DNA of 64,000 bases from Acidimicrobiales bacterium (GCA_016794585.1 JAEUJM010000029.1:62001-126000); one strand, 5' to 3'; shown: positions 33,133 to 54,335, counted from the first letter of the stretch. The notes: generated by a model from the sequence alone, not told the origin. Made by a program: numbers and translations.

Positions 33133-35484
33133 TCAGTCGATGAGGAACCAGCCGCGGACCGTGGCCTCGTGGTCGAGGTAGCGCTCCCCGGAGACGTCGA
33201 CGACCACCTTGTCGATGGCGCCGCCGGTGAAGGCGAACGGTGCCTGGTAGTTGGGCGACACCGCCGAGCCGGAGTCCCGTCCGATGGAGATCCCGTCGCC
33301 CGTGAGGCAGAAGTAGCCGGGCTGGGTGACGATCTCCCCCGAGCCGACCGCGGCGTCGTCCACGTACAGCGTGAGCGTGCCCTTCGCCCCGGGCTGCGCC
33401 GGGTCGGCGCTCGGCCCTTCGGCCTGGAACTCGGCCACGACGGTGTGCGCACCGGGCGCCAGCGGCGAGGTGGCCACGACGTCCTGCTGGTGGGTGCCCA
33501 CCCAGTTGAAGGTGTAGTGGAGGGTGCCGTCCTTCACGTAGAGGGCGTGGCCGCCCGGCACGCCGCCGTGGGCGAAGATCACGCCCTCGGCGCCCTCCTC
33601 GACCCGGACGCCTGCCGCGACGGCGTAGGACCGACCCGGGATCATCGGCCCGGCCGACTCGGGCACGTCGGAGGTCCCGGGGTAGAAGACGTACTGCGGC
33701 CGGTCGGGCGAGCCGTGCGGGCGCTCGGCCAGCACCTGCTCGATGGCGCTGCGGTCGTCGAGGGGCAGGCCGTTGTAGATGCCGGCGTAGTAGAACCACA
33801 GGCCCTTCATCAGCTCGAGGCGGTCGGGGTGATCGGCGGCCACGTTCTTCGACTGCGAGCGGTCGTGCTCGAGGTCGAACAGCTCCCACTCGTCGGCCAT
33901 GAAGTTGCCCCAGCCCGACAGCGGCGGGTGCACCGTGGTGGCCAGCCAGCCCTCGTGGTAGAGCGCTCGCTGGCCGAGCATCGTGTAGAACTGCGTGCGC
34001 TTGCCCGGCGCGGTGTTGTCGGTGAGGGCGGCGGCGAAGCTCTCGCCCTCGATGGGGCTCTGGACGAACCCCTTCAGCACCTCGGGGGGCTCGATGCCGA
34101 GCAGCTCGTACACGGTGGGCACGAGGTCGACGGCGTGCACGTACTGGTGGCGGACCTCCTCGGACGGGGCGATCTTGGCCGGCCAGGACACGATCAACAT
34201 GTCCGCGGTGCCGCCCTCCTCGCCCGCCCAGCGCTTCCAGTAGGGGAAGGGCGTGTCGAGGGCCCAGGCCCAGCCGGTGTTGTAGTGGTTGTTCGACGCC
34301 GGCGTGCCGAGCTCGTCGAGGTGCGGCATGGTCGTCTCGACGGTGTCGGCCACGCCGTTGAAGAAGCGCCACTCGTTGAACGAGCCGTTGGGGCCGCCCT
34401 CACCGGAGGCGCCGTTGTCCGAGCAGACGACGATCAAGGTGTTGTCGATCTCGCCCGACTCCTCGAGGTAGTCGAGGACGCGACCGAGGCGGTCGTCGTA
34501 GTAGGAGATGTAGCCCGCGAACACCTCGGCCATCCGGGTGAACATCTTCTTCTCGTCGTCGGTGAGGGTGTCCCACGGGCGCACGGTGTCGAGCAGCGGC
34601 CAGGGCTGGCCGTCGGGGCCGGTGCGGCCGGGCTCGCCGTGGGGGTTGATGGGCGAGAGCTCCGTGCCCTCGGGCAGGAGGCCGAGCTCGATCTGGCGGG
34701 CGAGGATGCCGTCGCGGATGGCCTCGTAGCCCTCGTCGAACACCCCCTTGTAGCGGTCGGCCCACTCGAGCGGCACGAGATGGGGGGCATGCCCGGCCTG
34801 AGGCGCCAGGTACATGAAGAAGGGCTTGTCCGGGTCGATGACCTTGGCGTCACGGATGAACTGCACCGCCGTGTCGGCCAGGTCGTCGGCGAGGTGATAG
34901 CCGTCTTCAGGACGGCCGGGAGGCTCGATTTGGTGGTTGTCGTTGACGAGGTCCGGGTAGTACGAGTTGGTCTCGCCGCCCAGCCAGCCGTAGAAGCGCT
35001 CGAAGCCGCGCCCGAGGGGCCAGCGGCCCTTGAAGGCGGCGGCGTTGACCTCCTCACCCGGGGTGAGGTGCCACTTGCCGACGCAGTAGGTGTTGTAGCC
35101 GTTCTCGGCCAGCACCTCGGAGATGAAGCCGTTCTCGAACGGGATGCGCGTCGAGATGCCCGGGAAGCCCGAGGCGAACTCGGCGATGGTGGCCATGCCG
35201 TTGCTGGTGGCGTTACGGCCGGTCAACAGCGAGGCTCGCGTCGGAGAGCACAGCGCGGTGGTGTGGAAGTTCGAGAACACCACGCCTCGCTCCGCGATGC
35301 GGCGCATGTTGGGGCACTCGACGGGGCCGCCGTAGGTGTCCATGGTGGCGAACCCGAGGTCGTCCCAGGTGAGGAAGAGGACGTTCGGTGCCCCCTCGGG
35401 CGCCCTGGGCGCGAGGTAGGGGGCCCAGTCGGGCTCCGAGTCGCGGATGTCCAGCTCGATCTTGCCGTTGAAGCGCGGCGCCAT
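33133..35484 (-). CDS. Type I arylsulfatase (formylglycine-dependent)
   Basis: 783 residues. Metal site PNVLFLTWDDLGF near residue 34 and the maturation motif LCSPTRASLLTGR, in which Cys is converted to formylglycine, identify the class. The catalytic domain continues to about residue 500 (DNGASGEGG metal ligands, GMATIAEFASG). The last ~200 residues are a beta-sandwich (YVKDGTLHYTFNWVG, YVDDAAVGSGEI) as in large arylsulfatases of this type. No signal peptide is visible, so it may be cytoplasmic. The Cys form requires FGE or a radical SAM maturase; one of the latter is at 53013. AAGGA lies ~10 nt before the ATG, and TACCT is repeated three times in the leader. Confidence 0.93.
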   Translation of the reverse strand: MAPRFNGKIELDIRDSEPDWAPYLAPRAPEGAPNVLFLTWDDLGFATMDTYGGPVECPNMRRIAERGVVFSNFHTTALCSPTRASLLTGRNATSNGMATIAEFASGFPGISTRIPFENGFISEVLAENGYNTYCVGKWHLTPGEEVNAAAFKGRWPLGRGFERFYGWLGGETNSYYPDLVNDNHQIEPPGRPEDGYHLADDLADTAVQFIRDAKVIDPDKPFFMYLAPQAGHAPHLVPLEWADRYKGVFDEGYEAIRDGILARQIELGLLPEGTELSPINPHGEPGRTGPDGQPWPLLDTVRPWDTLTDDEKKMFTRMAEVFAGYISYYDDRLGRVLDYLEESGEIDNTLIVVCSDNGASGEGGPNGSFNEWRFFNGVADTVETTMPHLDELGTPASNNHYNTGWAWALDTPFPYWKRWAGEEGGTADMLIVSWPAKIAPSEEVRHQYVHAVDLVPTVYELLGIEPPEVLKGFVQSPIEGESFAAALTDNTAPGKRTQFYTMLGQRALYHEGWLATTVHPPLSGWGNFMADEWELFDLEHDRSQSKNVAADHPDRLELMKGLWFYYAGIYNGLPLDDRSAIEQVLAERPHGSPDRPQYVFYPGTSDVPESAGPMIPGRSYAVAAGVRVEEGAEGVIFAHGGVPGGHALYVKDGTLHYTFNWVGTHQQDVVATSPLAPGAHTVVAEFQAEGPSADPAQPGAKGTLTLYVDDAAVGSGEIVTQPGYFCLTGDGISIGRDSGSAVSPNYQAPFAFTGGAIDKVVVDVSGERYLDHEATVRGWFLID

Positions 35485-42599: not shown

Positions 42600-43067
42600 G
42601 TGCCCGGAGGTCGGCTGACGCAGCGGCGCCGCTGGGCGCTCGCCACGGTCGCGGTGGTCGCCACCCTCGTCGTGCCGGTGGCGCTCGACCACGACAGCTT
42701 CCCGCTGTCGACCTACCCGATGTACTCGCAGGCCCGATCCGACCGGGTGACCCTCCCCACGGCGTTGGGGATCTCCGACGACGGGGCGGCCGCCCGCCTG
42801 TCCCTCGACCTCATCGGCGCCAGCGACGACCCCCTCGTCGTCGCCGGCGAGCTGCGGGAGGCCATCGCGAGGGGCACGGTCGACGAGCGCTGCCACGAGA
42901 TCGCCCGCCGAGTGGGCACCGAGGGGGCCGCCAACCCGACAGGGGAACGGATCGTGGCGGTAGAGATCGTGCTGGAGCACCACGACGTGGTCGACCAGGC
43001 CATGGGCGACCCCCCGCCCCTCCGACGGGAGCCCCTCGCCCGCTGCGAGGTGCCCGGGCCGACATGA
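42600..43067 (+). CDS. Membrane-anchored hypothetical protein paired with HTTM protein
   Basis: 155 residues. An Arg-rich N-terminus and one hydrophobic helix (LATVAVVATLVVPVAL) anchor it; the rest is probably extracellular. The DSFPLSTYPMYSQARSDR segment just after the helix is a recurrent motif in small proteins encoded before HTTM-domain genes. GTG start with G-rich sequence ~10 nt upstream. Its stop overlaps the ATG of the next gene by 4 bp (ATGA), so the two are coupled. Function unknown. Confidence 0.75.
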   Translation: MPGGRLTQRRRWALATVAVVATLVVPVALDHDSFPLSTYPMYSQARSDRVTLPTALGISDDGAAARLSLDLIGASDDPLVVAGELREAIARGTVDERCHEIARRVGTEGAANPTGERIVAVEIVLEHHDVVDQAMGDPPPLRREPLARCEVPGPT

Positions 43068-43972
43068 CGACCGTGTGGGCCCTCCATGCCGACGCCCCAC
43101 CGCAGCGCCTGGCCGCGGTACGGCTCCTGACGGGCGCGTTCGCGGTCGGCTACCTCGCCGTGCGCTCCCCCGCCTACCTGTCGCTCCGGGGGCGCAGCTC
43201 CGGCGGCTTCGAGGGCGTCGGCGTCCTGGCCTGGATGGGGAGCCCGGTCGCCGACCCGGTGGTGGCGGCGGCCCTGGGGCTCGCCCTCGTGTCGGGCACC
43301 GCCTTCACCGCCGGCGCGTGGTTCCGGGGCACCGGGCCGGCCTTCGCCCTCACGGTCCTGCTGCTGGCCACCTACCGGTCCTCGTGGGGACAGCTCCTGC
43401 ACTTCGAGAACCTGCTCGTGCTGCACCTGCTGGTCCTCGGGGTGGCGGCATCCGCCGATGCCTGGTCGTTCGACGCCCGCCGGCGGTCGAGCCCGAGGCG
43501 GGACCGCGCCTACGGCCCGCCGCTCGTGCTGCTGTGCGTGATCGTGGCCGTGACGTACGCGATCGCCGGCCTGGCCAAGCTGCGCTACGGCGGCGTGGAC
43601 TGGATCAGCGGCGACACCCTCCGGAACCACATCGCCTACTCGGCCACCCGCCTCAAGGTGCTCGGCGGTTCCCCGTCGCCCCTCGCTCCCCTCGCCGTGC
43701 GCCACCCGGGGGCGCTCGGCCCGATGGCGGCGGCCTCGGTGCTGATCGAGCTCGCCGCCCCGATCGCGCTGCTGGGCGGCTGGTGGCGCAACACCTGGGT
43801 CGCGGCGGCGTGGGTGATGCACGCCGCCATCGCGGCCCTCATGCTCGTGGTGTTCCCCTACCCGCTGTTCCTGGTGGCCTTCGCACCGTTCTTCGCTCTG
43901 GAACGGGCGGCGGCGTGGGCGCTCGCGACTCGAAGACGTTCAGCTGAACGCCCCACCGGCCCTTCGTCCTAG
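43064..43972 (+). CDS. HTTM-like multi-pass membrane protein
   Basis: 302 residues and about eight membrane helices. The segment YAIAGLAKLRYGGVDWISGDTL and the following HIAYSATRLK are typical of the horizontally-transferred-transmembrane (HTTM) family, related to vitamin-K-dependent gamma-carboxylases, though no carboxylase motif is obvious. Together with the coupled upstream protein it forms a small membrane unit, of unknown role, maybe in lipid or surface modification. Its end carries the palindrome and -10 element of the next cassette. Confidence 0.78.
   Translation: MTTVWALHADAPPQRLAAVRLLTGAFAVGYLAVRSPAYLSLRGRSSGGFEGVGVLAWMGSPVADPVVAAALGLALVSGTAFTAGAWFRGTGPAFALTVLLLATYRSSWGQLLHFENLLVLHLLVLGVAASADAWSFDARRRSSPRRDRAYGPPLVLLCVIVAVTYAIAGLAKLRYGGVDWISGDTLRNHIAYSATRLKVLGGSPSPLAPLAVRHPGALGPMAAASVLIELAAPIALLGGWWRNTWVAAAWVMHAAIAALMLVVFPYPLFLVAFAPFFALERAAAWALATRRRSAERPTGPSS
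43937..43950. promoter_or_regulatory. Perfect 14-bp palindrome CGTTCAGCTGAACG, candidate operator
   Basis: This exact palindrome is inside the last codons of the HTTM gene, overlapping the -35 position of the promoter for the OLD-type cassette. A dimeric repressor bound here would shut off that promoter. Confidence 0.45.
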
Positions 43973-43975
43973 CAT
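43970..43975 (+). promoter_or_regulatory. Candidate -10 element (TAGCAT) of the OLD-type cassette
   Basis: TAGCAT fits TAnnnT and lies 44 nt before the GTG of the 41-residue ORF, leaving a leader of about 37 nt that contains an AGGGAG ribosome site. Confidence 0.45.
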
Positions 43976-44018
43976 CGGCGTCCTGCTGATCGAGGCAGGC
44001 GACGACAGGGAGCATGAC

Positions 44019-44144
44019 GTGGCGAATGCCAGCTGCGGAACGGGACGCCACGAGCTGAGCGCACGGCAGCGGGAGAAGACGATCGAGTCGGAGGTCATGC
44101 GCACCACCTACGAAGCGCTCCGTGAGCGGGAGGCCGAGGCGTGA
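44019..44144 (+). CDS. 41-residue small protein coupled to OLD-family nuclease gene
   Basis: A short ORF from GTG at 44019 to TGA at 44142-44144, with a strong AGGGAG ribosome site exactly 6 nt upstream. Its last bases overlap the GTG of the nuclease gene (GTGA), an arrangement that couples translation. The product has one Cys, then a highly charged, probably helical part (ELSARQREKTIESEV, ALREREAEA) with no hydrophobic stretch. It matches no family I know. Its place suggests a partner, regulator or antitoxin-like modulator of the nuclease. It may instead be only a translational leader peptide. Confidence 0.55.
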   Translation: MANASCGTGRHELSARQREKTIESEVMRTTYEALREREAEA

Positions 44145-46537
44145 AGCTCGATCGGATCGAGATCAAGAACTACCGCTCGCTGTTCCACGACTACGACAGC
44201 AACGAGTCGTTCCGGCTCGACCTCGGCGAAGGCATGAACGCCATCACGGGGCCGAACAACGCCGGCAAGTCGAACGTCTTCAGGGCCTTGGCCCTCGCCC
44301 TCGACCCCGATTGCGCCTTCGACCGCTCCGCTGACATGCCGAGCCTCTGGAATTGGTCGAAGCCCTCGGTGACCCTCACCTTCCAGGTTCCCGTCCAAGG
44401 TCGCAGCAGCAAGGAGAAGACGCTGCTCAAGTACCTCGAGCAGTACGAGCGGAAGGTGAACCCGACAGCCAAGCGCACCTACGCGGAGGACGGGGTGGTC
44501 AAGCTCCGCGTGACCATCGAAGGCGCCGCCGACTCCGTGGGCACTCGTCGGGAGGTGTTCGTCGCCCGCGGAGGTGGCGCCCTCAGCCTGGGTGACGAAG
44601 ATGACCTCGCTCGCCGGACGATCGAGCAGTTTCACAAGTGCCTGCACTTCGTGATGATCAGCAGCGGCCAGTCACTCGAGAGCCTCATGGAAGGCAAGTT
44701 CCGGGACATCCTGCACAACGTCCTCCTGGAGGACCTCCGGGCGGAGTTCAAGGCCGCGAACCAGAGCCGGGAGAAGTACGAGGACGAGCTGCGAGGCGGG
44801 CTGCTCAAGCCGCTGGCCGACCGGATCTCCGAGGAGGTGCACGACCTCTTTCCAGAGATCTCCGGGGTGACTCTCGACCCCAGCGTCCTCCCTCTGGAGG
44901 AGACGCTCGCTCACATGGCTGTCCGGGTGAGCGACCGTGCGGTGACCGATCTCGCCGACAAGGGCACAGGGGTACGTGGGGGACTGATCATCGCGATGCT
45001 GCGCCACTTCGCGGACGTCGGGAAACGATCCATGCTGTTCGCCGTCGAGGAGCCCGAGTCGTTCCTGCACCCGGCCGCCCAGGAGCAGCTCCGCGAGGAC
45101 CTGGAGGCCCTCGCAGACCGCCGGGACGTCTCTCTCTTGGTCACGACCCACTCGCCCTACATCGTCTCTCGGCTGGGGGACTCGAAGGTCTTCGCGCTCG
45201 ACAAGGACGGCGAGGGGCGCACGGTCATCAGCGCGGAGGCGACCGGCGCCGATCCACACGCTCCCGTCATGGGTGGGCTGTTCCGAGATCGGCTCTCCGT
45301 CGAATGGATCGACCGGGCGCAGTCCGTACCAGGGGACACGAGCCTGATCCTCGTGGTCGAAGGCCCCACCGACCAGGCGTTCGCCGAGCTCGCGCTCACT
45401 GCGGCGGGTCGGCCAGATCTCTTGGCGGGAGTCCACTTCCTTCATGCGGGCGCAGGCCTTGCATCAGGTGGCGGCGCCCACCTAGCGGTGATGCAGGCAC
45501 TCCTCGCTCGATCCACGTCCCCATCGGCGGTGAAGGTCGCGGCACTCTTCGATGATGACGATCCGGGCCGCGAGGCGGCCAACATGCTGAGTCAGATCGG
45601 CAAGAAGACCGACGAGTGGAAGAGGGGCAAGTCGATCTTCAGCTACGCCGCGGTCTTCCACGCAAGCAAGCAGAACATCCGCTACGAGGCCGAGGATCTC
45701 TGGCCGAACAGCCTGCACGAAGGATTCCTGGCCGTCTGCGAGGACCAGGGATGGCTCAAGCGGAAGGAGAAGCTGAACCCACCTGAGGTCGGCTACCAGT
45801 ACGACTGGACGAGTGCGGCAAAGTGGCCCCTCGTCGCCTACCTTCGCGACAACGTCGAATCGAGCGACTGCCAACGGTGGGTGGACCTCTTCGAACTGAT
45901 CCACAAGGGTGCTGGCATCGAGCCCGCAGTGGCTCCCGATACCGGCGTACCCCATGTCGCCCCGGCGGCCAAGGCTGATCCAGGGACGGAGAGTCCGCGC
46001 AGCTATCTGGCCGCAGTGCTCGCCGAGGTGCGTTCCCGCCTGGAGGCCGCCGGCCTCGAACGGGTCCGCATGCACACGGGCGGTGCATTCATCGAGATGC
46101 GGCCGCCGAAGGCGGCTGGCCTCGAACCAGCGGACGGACACTTCCTCATCAAGGTCACCGCAGCTGACACCAAAGTGGACCTGGTGCTCCACAAACTCCC
46201 TGACCGACGCTCGAACTTCGCAGCACTCGAGGTCCTTCGATCACGCTACGAAGACGAGATCGCGCTGAACGACAACGGCCTGTACGTGACCTCGTGGACC
46301 GCGGGGCAAGGCGACGCGGTCCGGTCCTACGCGCAGACGGTCCGTGAAGGGTCTGGGCGAAGCAGCGCCACGCCGGCCGAGACGGCCAAATGGGCGGCGG
46401 ACATCTGCCTCGCGTGGACCGACGTGCTGTTGTCGGACCCGATTCCCGACCTGCTTGGCGCTGTCGATCAGCAACTCGCGGCCAGCACTCCTGTGCCAGA
46501 CGACGTCGGCGGCGACCCAAACCCGGCGTCGACCTGA
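44141..46537 (+). CDS. OLD-family ATPase/TOPRIM nuclease with extra C-terminal domain
   Basis: 798 residues, GTG start. N-terminal ABC-type ATPase: Walker A ITGPNNAGKSN (37-44), signature-like KGTGVRGGLI (274-283), Walker B SMLFAVEEPESFLHP (acidic pair at 303-304), H-loop VTTHSPYIV (His 337). TOPRIM nuclease: ILVVEGPTDQAF (Glu 407) and AALFDDDDPGR (Asp 471-474), then YEAEDLWP (516-521). This order is that of OLD proteins such as phage P2 OLD and GajA of Gabija, which cleave DNA in anti-phage defence. Residues ~618-770 form a further domain I cannot assign. No helicase (GajB) or other partner gene is nearby except the coupled 41-residue ORF. Base composition is about 60% GC in lines I counted, below neighbours, which suggests transfer. 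Confidence 0.88.
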   Translation: MKLDRIEIKNYRSLFHDYDSNESFRLDLGEGMNAITGPNNAGKSNVFRALALALDPDCAFDRSADMPSLWNWSKPSVTLTFQVPVQGRSSKEKTLLKYLEQYERKVNPTAKRTYAEDGVVKLRVTIEGAADSVGTRREVFVARGGGALSLGDEDDLARRTIEQFHKCLHFVMISSGQSLESLMEGKFRDILHNVLLEDLRAEFKAANQSREKYEDELRGGLLKPLADRISEEVHDLFPEISGVTLDPSVLPLEETLAHMAVRVSDRAVTDLADKGTGVRGGLIIAMLRHFADVGKRSMLFAVEEPESFLHPAAQEQLREDLEALADRRDVSLLVTTHSPYIVSRLGDSKVFALDKDGEGRTVISAEATGADPHAPVMGGLFRDRLSVEWIDRAQSVPGDTSLILVVEGPTDQAFAELALTAAGRPDLLAGVHFLHAGAGLASGGGAHLAVMQALLARSTSPSAVKVAALFDDDDPGREAANMLSQIGKKTDEWKRGKSIFSYAAVFHASKQNIRYEAEDLWPNSLHEGFLAVCEDQGWLKRKEKLNPPEVGYQYDWTSAAKWPLVAYLRDNVESSDCQRWVDLFELIHKGAGIEPAVAPDTGVPHVAPAAKADPGTESPRSYLAAVLAEVRSRLEAAGLERVRMHTGGAFIEMRPPKAAGLEPADGHFLIKVTAADTKVDLVLHKLPDRRSNFAALEVLRSRYEDEIALNDNGLYVTSWTAGQGDAVRSYAQTVREGSGRSSATPAETAKWAADICLAWTDVLLSDPIPDLLGAVDQQLAASTPVPDDVGGDPNPAST

Positions 46538-46558: not shown

Positions 46559-47950
46559 TCAGCAGACCTTGGCGCGCTTGTGCTCCTGGTGGGGCTTCTG
46601 GGAGCGGATCTCGGGCGGTAGGGCGCCGAGCTCGTCGCCGACGCGGTGGAAGTCGGCGATCAGCAGGTCGGCCATGTCGCGGCTCATGCCTTCGCGCACC
46701 ACGACCCGGATGACCGAGACGTCGTCGGCGTCCTTGGCGAGCGTGTAGGCCGGCACGATCCAGCCCCGCTCCTTCATCTTGGCGCTGATGTCGTAGGCGG
46801 TGAAGCCCATGCCGTCGGCCACCTTGGCGCAGACGAGGGGTAGGGCGTTGCGCTTGCTCATGAGCTCGAGGTACGGGCTCGCCTCGACGAGGTCGCTCAG
46901 GTAGTCGGCGGTGGCCGACAGGCGGGTCATCACGTCCGTGTAACCCTCACGACCCATGCGCAGGAAGTTGTAGTACTGCGCCACGATCTGGCTGGCGCCA
47001 CGCGAGAAGTTGAGGTCGAAGGTGGGCTGGTCGCCGCCCAGGTAGTTGGTGTGGAAGATGAGCTCCTCGGGCAGCTGGCTCTTGTCCCGCCAGAGGGCCC
47101 AGCCCACACCGGGGTACACCAGGCCGTACTTGTGGCCGGAGGCGTTGATGGACTTCACCCGCGGCAGGCGGAAGTCCCACGCCAGGTCGGGCTGGGTGAA
47201 GGGGGCCACGAAGGCGCCGCTGGCGCCGTCCACGTGGAGCGGGACGTCGAGGCCGGTGCGCTCCTGGAGGGCGTCGAGGGCGTCGGACAGGCCCTGGATG
47301 TCCTCGAACTCACCGGTGTAGGTCGAGCCGAGGATGCCCACGACGCCGATGGTGTTCTCGTCGACGAGCTCCATGGCCAGGGCCGGGTCGATGACCGTGC
47401 GCTCGGCGGTGATGGGAACGAAGCGGGGCTCGACGTCGAAGTAGCGGACGAACTTCTCCCAGCACACCTGCACCGTCTCGCTCATCACGAGGTTCGGGTG
47501 ATCGGTGGACTTGCCCTCGGCCTCGCGGGCCTTACGCCAGCGCCACTTCATGGCGAGACCGGCGAGGTGGATGGCCTCGGACGAGCCGACCGTGGCGGTT
47601 CCCATGGCGTGGGCCGAGTCGTCGGCGTGGAAGAGGTCGGCGAGGATGCTGACGCACCGGTTCTGGATCTCGGTGGTCTGGGGGTACTCGTCCTGGTCGA
47701 TGCTGTTGACGTTGAGGGTCTCGTTGATGAGCTTCTCGGCCTCAGGCTCCATCCAGGTGGTGACGAAGGTGGCGAGGTTCAGCGCCGGGTTGCCGTCGAG
47801 GGCGAGCTCGTCGTGGATGAGCTGGTACGCCAGGCGGGCGGGCATGTCCCCTTCGGGCAGGCGGTACTTCGGCACGGGCTCCGAGAGAGAGCGGCTGCCG
47901 TACGCAGGAGCCAGCGTGTCGTCAGGATCGTTCTCGGCGTGGTTGAACAT
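46559..47950 (-). CDS. gad: Glutamate decarboxylase (PLP-dependent)
   Basis: 463 residues, the usual length. The PLP-binding lysine is in SINASGHKYGLVYPG, with HVDGASGAFVAPF giving the cofactor Asp. TTEIQNRCVSILADLFHA and GTATVGSSEAIHLAGL are typical of GadB-type enzymes. It converts glutamate to GABA and consumes a proton, which helps acid tolerance in many bacteria. No gadC-type antiporter is adjacent; the divergent neighbour is a SulP transporter. A C-terminal segment with His and Lys (QEHKRAKVC) could be the pH-sensing tail. ATG start, with a -10 (TACTCT) at 47975-47980 on the minus strand. Confidence 0.94.
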   Translation of the reverse strand: MFNHAENDPDDTLAPAYGSRSLSEPVPKYRLPEGDMPARLAYQLIHDELALDGNPALNLATFVTTWMEPEAEKLINETLNVNSIDQDEYPQTTEIQNRCVSILADLFHADDSAHAMGTATVGSSEAIHLAGLAMKWRWRKAREAEGKSTDHPNLVMSETVQVCWEKFVRYFDVEPRFVPITAERTVIDPALAMELVDENTIGVVGILGSTYTGEFEDIQGLSDALDALQERTGLDVPLHVDGASGAFVAPFTQPDLAWDFRLPRVKSINASGHKYGLVYPGVGWALWRDKSQLPEELIFHTNYLGGDQPTFDLNFSRGASQIVAQYYNFLRMGREGYTDVMTRLSATADYLSDLVEASPYLELMSKRNALPLVCAKVADGMGFTAYDISAKMKERGWIVPAYTLAKDADDVSVIRVVVREGMSRDMADLLIADFHRVGDELGALPPEIRSQKPHQEHKRAKVC

Positions 47951-53012: not shown

Positions 53013-54335
53013 ATGGCCCCGACCCCCGTCTCGCTCGGCCGCCGCTCCGACGGCGCCCCGCCCGGGCCGGCGCTGCCTTCCCCCCGCCCGCTCACCGCGC
53101 CGGCGCAGTTCCACGTCCTGGCCAAGCCGACCGGCCCCATCTGCAACCTGGACTGCGAGTACTGCTTCTTCCTGTCGAAAGAGGCGCTCTACCCCGGCGA
53201 CCGGTTCCGCATGGGCGACGACGTCCTCGAGCAGTACCTCCGCCAGCTCCTCGAGTCGATGGACGGGCCGACCGCCACCATCGCGTGGCAGGGCGGCGAG
53301 CCCACGCTGATGGGTGTGGACTTCTTCCGCCGAGCGGTGGAGCTGGCCGAGTCGCTCAAGCGGCCCGGCCAGCGCCTCGAGCACACCATCCAGACCAACG
53401 GCACGCTCCTCACCGACGAGTGGTGCGAGCTCCTCGCCCGGCACCGGTTCCTCGTCGGCATCAGCATCGACGGCCCTCCCGACCTGCACGACGCCTACCG
53501 GGTCGACAAGCGGGGCGGGCCGACGTCGGACAAGGTGCTGCGGGGCCTCGAGCTGCTGAAGGCCCACGGCGTCGACTGGAACGTCCTGTGCACGGTGCAC
53601 GCCGCCAACCAGCACGCGCCGCTGGAGATCTACCGGTGGTTCCGGGACGAGCTCGGCGCGGCACACGTCCAGCTCATCCCCATCGTCGAGCGCGACAACG
53701 ACACCGGCTACCAGGAGGGCGACCGGGTCACCGTCCGCTCGGTGGATCCCGAGGCGTGGGGCGAGTTCCTCGTGTCGGTCTTCGACGAGTGGCTGCGCCA
53801 CGACGTCGGCCGGGTGTTCGTGCCCCACTTCGACGCCGCCCTGGCGTCCTGGGTGGGGGCGCCGGCGTCGTTGTGCATCTTCGGCGAGACCTGCGGCGAC
53901 GCCGTGGCCCTCGAGCACAACGGGGACCTCTACTCCTGCGACCACTTCGTCGAGCCCGCCCACCTGCTCGGCAACATCGTCGACACCCACCTCGTCGAGC
54001 TGATGGCGTCCCCCCAGCAGCGTGCCTTCGGCGAGGCCAAGCGCGACACGCTGCCCCAGTACTGCCTCGACTGCGAGGTGCGCTTCGCCTGCCAGGGCGA
54101 GTGCCCCAAGAACCGGTTCACCACCACCCCCGACGGCGACCCGGGCCTCAACTACCTCTGTGCCGGGTACCGCCGCTTCTTCAACCACGTCGACGGGCCC
54201 ATGCGCCTGATGGCCGATCTGCTCCGTCAGGGCCGCTTCGCCGACGAGGTCATGGGCATCTTCGCCGGCGCCGGCCGCAACGACCCGTGCCCGTGCGGCA
54301 GCGGCCGCAAGGCCAAGCTCTGCCACGGCCGCTGA
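53013..54335 (+). CDS. Radical SAM/SPASM enzyme, anaerobic sulfatase-maturase type, with SEC-C tail
   Basis: 440 residues. The [4Fe-4S]-SAM motif is in GPICNLDCEYCFFLS (CxxxCxxC) near residue 45, then IAWQGGEPTLMG and the SAM-binding GISIDGPPDLHDAYR. A SPASM domain with a cluster of cysteines (CGDAVALEHNGDLYSCDHF, CLDCEVRFACQGECPKNR) holds two extra iron-sulfur clusters. This pattern is the anSME family, which converts Cys or Ser of sulfatases to formylglycine without oxygen. The last 20 residues form a SEC-C zinc motif (NDPCPCGSGRKAKLCHG), an uncommon addition. A Cys-type sulfatase is encoded at 33133-35484. Function on that substrate is inference. Confidence 0.9.
   Translation: MAPTPVSLGRRSDGAPPGPALPSPRPLTAPAQFHVLAKPTGPICNLDCEYCFFLSKEALYPGDRFRMGDDVLEQYLRQLLESMDGPTATIAWQGGEPTLMGVDFFRRAVELAESLKRPGQRLEHTIQTNGTLLTDEWCELLARHRFLVGISIDGPPDLHDAYRVDKRGGPTSDKVLRGLELLKAHGVDWNVLCTVHAANQHAPLEIYRWFRDELGAAHVQLIPIVERDNDTGYQEGDRVTVRSVDPEAWGEFLVSVFDEWLRHDVGRVFVPHFDAALASWVGAPASLCIFGETCGDAVALEHNGDLYSCDHFVEPAHLLGNIVDTHLVELMASPQQRAFGEAKRDTLPQYCLDCEVRFACQGECPKNRFTTTPDGDPGLNYLCAGYRRFFNHVDGPMRLMADLLRQGRFADEVMGIFAGAGRNDPCPCGSGRKAKLCHGR

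What the first reader, a model, noticed from the sequence alone, without database searches (positions are those of the whole stretch)
43937..46537. Lower-GC OLD-family nuclease cassette with a coupled 41-residue ORF and an operator-like palindrome
The 798-residue protein has complete ATPase and TOPRIM motifs of OLD/GajA anti-phage nucleases, but no UvrD-like (GajB) or other known partner is nearby. It starts inside the stop codon of a 41-residue ORF with a perfect ribosome site, is preceded by a TAGCAT -10 and an exact 14-bp palindrome, carries an unassigned ~150-residue C-terminal domain, and has lower GC than its neighbours. Seen: the motifs, the overlap and the palindrome. Known: OLD nucleases in defence. 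Inferred: this is a transferred two-component defence unit.
Basis: partly seen in the sequence, partly recalled or inferred. Interest (0 to 1): 0.8.

Follow-up and report, generated by a model that had tools for sequence, protein, structure and literature searches.

The report
Solo OLD nuclease with borrowed tail
This is a stand-alone bacterial nuclease of the OLD family, most likely a phage-defence enzyme gained by gene transfer, which carries an extra tail domain also found on a type I restriction enzyme; the tiny gene in front of it is not a conserved partner.

Summary
The 798-residue gene (44141-46537) is a real, motif-complete OLD-type ABC-ATPase/TOPRIM nuclease. The reported 41-residue ORF, 4-nt overlap, palindrome, -10-like box and lower GC are all present. 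The two-component idea fails. None of five related loci in the same order (41-63% identity) has the small ORF, and each has an unrelated leader. An ORF this long ending on that TGA is expected in about 20% of cases. The palindrome lies inside the end of the upstream HTTM gene and is one of 27 in the window. The relatives are rare and patchy (5 of 396 other genomes). Four lie beside defence genes: directly downstream of HmaABC, downstream of a BREX-like cluster, or next to other PADLOC candidates. In the window the gene stands alone among transporters and enzymes, with no mobility marks. The nuclease core ends near residue 593. The rest is an add-on slot: absent in most relatives, winged-helix-like in one, and here a domain missing from Pfam. 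I found that domain at the C-terminus of HsdR in a complete type I restriction locus, in the position DUF4268 occupies in related nucleases. The best reading is a transferred single-gene OLD effector with an exchangeable C-terminal recognition domain: a new variant of a known kind, not a two-component system.

The parts
44141..46537 (+). OLD-family ABC-ATPase/TOPRIM nuclease gene, 798 aa, GTG start
   Evidence: ORF; Pfam AAA_15/AAA_21/AAA_23; PADLOC Old/GajA; start codon matched by relatives' ATG/GTG
44141..45919 (+). Conserved nuclease core, residues 1-593 (ATPase, TOPRIM, short helical end with invariant K561)
   Evidence: Alignment of 11 relatives ends here in 9 of 10 others; AlphaFold2 core mostly pLDDT 60-95; Foldseek to GajA 8sm3 and TsOLD 6p74, E 5e-17 and 3e-16
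44249..44272 (+). Walker A, GPNNAGKS
   Evidence: Sequence, alignment
45032..45058 (+). Walker B, MLFAVEEPE (E303/E304)
   Evidence: Sequence; the E in place of the Walker B aspartate is also described for TsOLD (PMC7049728)
45359..45823 (+). TOPRIM catalytic set E407, D411, D471, D473, E516, E518 and invariant K561
   Evidence: Invariant in 11 sequences; first four in register with TsOLD E377/D381/D431/D433
45986..46480 (+). C-terminal add-on domain, residues 616-780, DUF4268-like, after a Pro/Ala-rich linker
   Evidence: 34% identity, E 2.9e-23, to the C-terminus of HsdR in G1052; profile comparison with DUF4268 above controls
44019..44144 (+). 41-codon leader ORF, stop overlapping the OLD start by 4 nt (GTGA); not conserved
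   Evidence: absent in relatives; chance of occurrence about 20%, coding-like GC periodicity
43970..43975 (+). TAGCAT, -10-like hexamer; overlaps the stop codon of the HTTM gene
   Evidence: Sequence only; not found by the sigma-70 scan
43937..43950 (.). Perfect 14-bp palindrome CGTTCAGCTGAACG inside the 3' end of the HTTM gene; probably chance
   Evidence: 27 such palindromes in the window, 5-20 in shuffles
43058..43972 (+). Upstream neighbour: HTTM-domain protein, paired with ORF 42600-43067; not defence
   Evidence: Pfam HTTM; the pair is conserved in five other families without OLD
46559..47950 (-). Downstream convergent neighbour: glutamate decarboxylase; not defence
   Evidence: TIGR01788 E 7e-199

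Best explanation
A horizontally acquired, single-gene OLD nuclease. SHOWN by sequence: an intact ABC-type ATPase with a TOPRIM metal-binding site, conserved across rare relatives that mostly sit in defence loci; a modular C-terminal slot filled here by a domain shared with a type I restriction HsdR; no conserved partner gene. INFERRED: the ATPase dimer senses a sign of phage infection (in known OLDs, inhibition of RecBCD, or phage proteins and DNA ends) and releases the TOPRIM site to cut nucleic acid (DNA, or tRNA as for P2 Old), stopping the phage or the cell. The C-terminal DUF4268-like domain adjusts what is recognised (substrate or trigger). The 41-codon ORF is at most a leader that feeds ribosomes to the overlapping start codon, or the leftover end of a former upstream gene.
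For: Motifs complete. Best solved relative by profile is TsOLD 6p74 (E 3e-19), then PtuA and GajA; best folds GajA and TsOLD. Relatives adjoin HmaABC (hmaC stop overlaps the OLD start, GTGA), a BrxC/BrxHI/PDC-S68 cluster, PDC-S37 and PDC-M33A/C. PMC12839542 describes TOPRIM-linked OLD-ABC genes as backup effectors of BREX and BREX-related (including DUF499/Hma) systems. Patchy distribution and lower GC. C-terminal domain shared with HsdR of a complete HsdM-HsdS-HsdR locus. Single OLDs with phage defence or interference: P2 Old, V. cholerae OLD, E. coli YbjD.
Against: No defence gene was seen among the neighbours tested in the window, and no integrase, tRNA or flanking repeat shows a transfer event. 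GC may differ for other reasons. Anti-phage function was not tested. One archaeal OLD (Cran1) has a cell-cycle role, so defence is not certain (abstract).
Confidence: 0.65

Rival explanations
1. Orphaned effector: the gene came from a BREX- or Hma-type locus as a backup nuclease and still acts, or once acted, with such a system. The 41-codon ORF is the leftover 3' end of the former upstream gene.
For: In G611 the relative starts on the hmaC stop with the same 4-nt GTGA overlap; in G399 it follows BrxC...PDC-S68. The small ORF has coding-like GC periodicity.
Against: The 41-mer resembles no C-terminus seen. GTGA overlaps are common by chance. No BREX or Hma gene was found among the neighbours tested.
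Confidence: 0.2
2. Not defence: a chromosomal OLD used for DNA repair, replication or cell cycle, like archaeal Cran1.
For: The gene lies among metabolic and transport genes; OLD proteins outside defence exist (Cran1 abstract).
Against: Patchy presence (5 of 396 other genomes in the order), relatives beside defence genes, variable C-terminus.
Confidence: 0.12
3. One reading: a two-component defence unit in which the 41-residue peptide regulates or inhibits the nuclease, controlled through the palindrome.
For: Perfect ribosome site, overlap, coding-like GC periodicity.
Against: Absent in all five loci with readable leaders at 41-63% identity; no relatives; ORF and palindrome within chance.
Confidence: 0.05

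Closest known systems
Class 1 (single-gene) OLD nucleases: P2 Old, T. scotoductus OLD (6p74), V. cholerae OLD, E. coli YbjD
   Same: ABC ATPase with Glu in Walker B, TOPRIM E/D/DxD residues, single gene without helicase; 6p74 is the best profile hit in the PDB
   Different: Extra C-terminal domain of about 190 residues. The basic catalytic residue that TsOLD has 7 residues after its last metal ligand (R487) is not there; an invariant Lys (K561) lies about 43 residues on, in the next-to-last core helix, as K562 does in Class 2 BpOLD
Class 2 OLD / GajA (Gabija)
   Same: Overall fold (8sm3 best Foldseek hit); core length near GajA; Lys in a helix near the C-terminus
   Different: No GajB/UvrD gene beside it here or in the related loci
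TOPRIM-linked OLD-ABC backup effectors of BREX and BREX-related systems (PMC12839542)
   Same: Relatives in G611 and G399 sit in such loci
   Different: The window copy is solitary
DUF4268 (PF14088) domains of restriction nucleases, including GmrSD type IV enzymes (PMC4619093) and PD-(D/E)XK-DUF4268 proteins
   Same: In the HsdR of G1052 the shared domain follows the same PD-(D/E)XK module (E 2e-20) that DUF4268 follows; two-sequence profile score 22.9 against 16.3 for the best of 56 controls
   Different: Pfam DUF4268 does not match it; hhalign probability is only 5-6%, so the kinship is distant and unproven

Membership tests
OLD family | N-terminal ABC-type ATPase with Walker A/B and H-loop | tested here: met
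OLD family | C-terminal TOPRIM with E, DxD and further acidic metal ligands | tested here: met
   E407, D411, D471, D473, E516, E518 invariant; first four aligned to TsOLD. Pfam Toprim_2 below cut-off
OLD family | Nuclease activity | not testable with these tools
   needs enzymology
Class 1 OLD | Single isolated gene, no helicase or reverse transcriptase beside it | tested here: met
   Neighbours HTTM, glutamate decarboxylase, transporters; relatives, however, are often in defence loci
Class 1 OLD | Arg/Lys in the loop shortly after the last TOPRIM metal ligand (TsOLD R487) | tested here: not met
   Residues 519-526 are DLWPNSLH; no conserved K/R there; K561 invariant instead
[quoted passage not shown]
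   No such gene in the window region or beside relatives; PDC-S68 and PDC-S37 helicases near two relatives are other families
Class 2 OLD / Gabija | C-terminal helical domain with catalytic Lys (BpOLD K562) | tested here: inconclusive
   Invariant K561 in helix 558-571, then final core helix 574-590; the five-helix bundle is not seen and active-site distance could not be measured
Class 3 OLD (retron) | Reverse transcriptase and ncRNA beside it | tested here: not met
   No RT among neighbouring genes scanned; ncRNA not searched
PARIS | ATPase (AriA) and TOPRIM (AriB) as separate proteins | tested here: not met
   Both in one protein
DUF4268 (for the C-terminal domain) | Match to PF14088 over cut-off | tested here: not met
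   No match even at E 10; weak profile similarity above controls
Two-component system with the 41-mer | Small ORF conserved beside relatives | tested here: not met
   Absent in five loci

The most novel reading that the evidence does not exclude
The C-terminal domain shared with HsdR is an integrated decoy or sensor. Phage anti-restriction proteins that bind the HsdR tail would also bind the OLD protein and switch on its nuclease, so that attacking restriction triggers a second, suicidal defence (PARIS-like logic in one polypeptide, with an exchangeable bait domain).
Probability: 0.06. Interest if true: 0.8.

Novelty: new variant of a known kind. Interest (0 to 1): 0.36.

Why it matters
What single-gene OLD nucleases sense, and how they are kept off, is still open. 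A subfamily whose core keeps its motifs while its tail is swapped (none, winged-helix-like, or a domain shared with a type I restriction enzyme) points to the tail as the specificity part. It offers a direct test by tail deletion or exchange between relatives in a laboratory host. The case also shows that class labels by neighbourhood and by catalytic layout can disagree.

Tried and rejected
41-mer as conserved partner: rejected. Palindrome as operator: no support; CGTTCAGCTGAACG occurs once in the window. The sigma-70 scan found only one weak promoter-like match, inside the gene. Mobile-element marks: no tRNA, no convincing flanking direct repeat. C-terminal domain by single-sequence hhalign against DUF4268: not significant; only the two-sequence profile rises above controls. 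AlphaFold2 of the C-terminal domain alone is poor (pLDDT 49), so its Foldseek hits (E >= 0.4) were disregarded. Searches of viral contigs with the protein alignment, its tail and the tail alignment found nothing; no plasmid match; only weak phage matches, including P2 old at 22% identity. The papers on V. cholerae OLD and on P2 Old tRNA cleavage were not held; both are cited through other papers.

Full report
WHAT IS THERE. The window's gene 44141-46537 encodes 798 residues with an ABC-type ATPase (Pfam AAA_15 9e-23) and TOPRIM residues. PADLOC's best model is Old (7e-30), followed by AriA and GajA. Relatives start at the same codon (MKL..IEIKNYRSL), which confirms the GTG start. GC is 65-67% against 70-75% around it. 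GC3 is 0.85 in the core and 0.78 in the tail, against 0.94-0.97 for most neighbours.

SMALL ORF. 44019-44144 overlaps the start by four bases (GTGA) and has a good ribosome site. A GTG AAG start carries a TGA in the +1 frame by itself. With this leader composition an ORF of 41 codons or more ends there in 18% of shuffles, and at 22% of all GTGA sites in the window. Its codon-position GC pattern is coding-like (P about 0.001-0.01, same call), so it may be, or have been, translated. But the loci of G382 (63% identity), G399 (61% over the N-terminus), G578 (56%), G611 (44%) and G149 (41%) carry unrelated leaders. A search of 198 genomes gave only itself and a 17-residue match at E 0.09, and the plasmid collection only one match at E 10. 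It is not a conserved component.

PALINDROME AND PROMOTER. The 14-bp palindrome (43937-43950) lies within the last codons of the HTTM gene (43058-43972). TAGCAT (43970-43975) overlaps that gene's stop codon. Perfect 14-bp palindromes number 27 in the window and 5-20 in shuffles, so this one needs no explanation.

RELATIVES AND THEIR PLACES. In the order sampled, 6 of 397 genomes have the gene, the host included; sister genomes in the families of G382 and G578 lack it. No plasmid or viral-contig relative was found. In G611 the gene begins on the stop of hmaC, after hmaA and hmaB. In G399 it follows a BrxC-BrxHI-PDC-S68 cluster. In G578 it adjoins PDC-S37, in G382 PDC-M33A/C, and in G149 a NYN-domain gene near a tRNA-Val-like sequence read by eye. 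A 2026 study names TOPRIM-linked OLD-ABC genes as backup effectors of BREX and BREX-related systems, among which it counts the DUF499 systems also called Hma (PMC12839542). The window copy has no such neighbour. The HTTM pair upstream recurs in five other families without it, and the downstream gene is glutamate decarboxylase. This fits gain by transfer, although no insertion boundary, tRNA or repeat marks one.

CATALYTIC LAYOUT. Walker A, Walker B with Glu in place of Asp, and the H-loop are intact. E407, D411, D471 and D473 align with TsOLD E377, D381, D431 and D433. E516 and E518 follow as the likely further ligands (assigned by order, not by alignment). TsOLD has Arg487 seven residues beyond its last ligand; here that stretch is DLWPNSLH. 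The one invariant basic residue of this region in 11 relatives is K561, in a helix followed by the last core helix, which resembles K562 in the helical domain of Class 2 BpOLD (PMC6755086). By neighbourhood the gene is Class 1; by this feature it leans to Class 2. Foldseek ranks GajA and TsOLD about equally. The model's core is mostly well predicted (mean pLDDT 71 over the whole chain).

THE TAIL. Nine of ten aligned relatives end near residue 593. The G578 protein goes on for about 200 residues with a weak winged-helix match (PF25213, 4e-4). The window protein has a Pro/Ala-rich linker and then a domain without Pfam match. That domain recurs at the C-terminus of a 1549-codon open frame in G1052 (34% identity, E 2.9e-23). 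The frame is HsdR (HSDR_N, SWI2_SNF2, T1R domains, AlbA_2), with HsdS and HsdM next to it. In that HsdR the domain follows a PD-(D/E)XK module that is 2e-20 similar to the module preceding DUF4268 in DUF4268 proteins. The two-sequence profile scores 22.9-23.2 against a DUF4268 profile, against at most 19.3 for 60 column shuffles and 16.3 for 56 slices of the OLD core. The E-value is only 0.006-0.007 and the probability about 6%, so 'DUF4268-like' is a moderate claim; 'shared with HsdR' is firm. DUF4268 is reported on GmrSD type IV restriction enzymes (PMC4619093).

HOW IT MOST LIKELY WORKS. Known OLDs respond to signs of infection: P2 Old to RecBCD inhibition with tRNA cleavage, Gabija to RecBCD inhibition and DNA ends, retron Eco8 to phage SSB (PMC12904381). 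By analogy the window protein would be a dimeric ATPase that holds a TOPRIM nuclease in check until infection. The tail, being exchangeable and shared with a restriction subunit, would set what is recognised. These steps are inferred. The family, the motifs, the missing partner and the tail's kinship are shown.

VERDICT. The gene itself is an ordinary member of the OLD family. It becomes a new variant through the tail and the mixed Class 1/Class 2 layout. The two-component claim is not supported.

Noticed in passing
L050-L055 (G763, G1006, G870, G936, G841, G999), aligned in A2: A sister group of OLD proteins elsewhere in the phylum has lost Walker A Lys (K to T), the second Walker B Glu (E304 to S, N or A) and the H-loop His (to T or A), and lacks the ATPase insert, but keeps every TOPRIM residue and the invariant Lys. 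The copies compared with G870 are 53-59% identical to it and sit in different neighbourhoods: an apparently ATPase-dead OLD family with an intact nuclease site.
   Followed up: partly
L057:6073-8472 (minus): The G578 relative (800 aa) carries a different C-terminal add-on with a winged-helix match (PF25213, E 4e-4, two stretches), after a Pro-rich linker like that of the window protein.
   Followed up: partly
L090:1992-6611 (minus): HsdR of a complete type I restriction locus with an extra Schlafen AlbA_2 domain, a second PD-(D/E)XK nuclease module and the DUF4268-like tail fused to its C-terminus.
   Followed up: partly
L058:472-11078: HmaA-HmaB-HmaC followed by an OLD nuclease whose start codon overlaps the hmaC stop: a four-gene Hma operon with a TOPRIM effector.
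   Followed up: no
L032:8195-10771: In G149 a NYN-domain nuclease gene lies directly upstream of the OLD gene, just after a tRNA-Val-like sequence (read by eye), which suggests a tRNA-site island.
   Followed up: no
window 33133-35484 and 53013-54335: A sulfatase (minus strand) and, 18 kb away, a radical-SAM/SPASM protein of the kind that includes sulfatase-maturing enzymes.
   Followed up: no
window 42600-43067 and 43058-43972: A small unassigned protein and an HTTM-domain protein form a conserved overlapping pair in at least five other families of the order.
   Followed up: no
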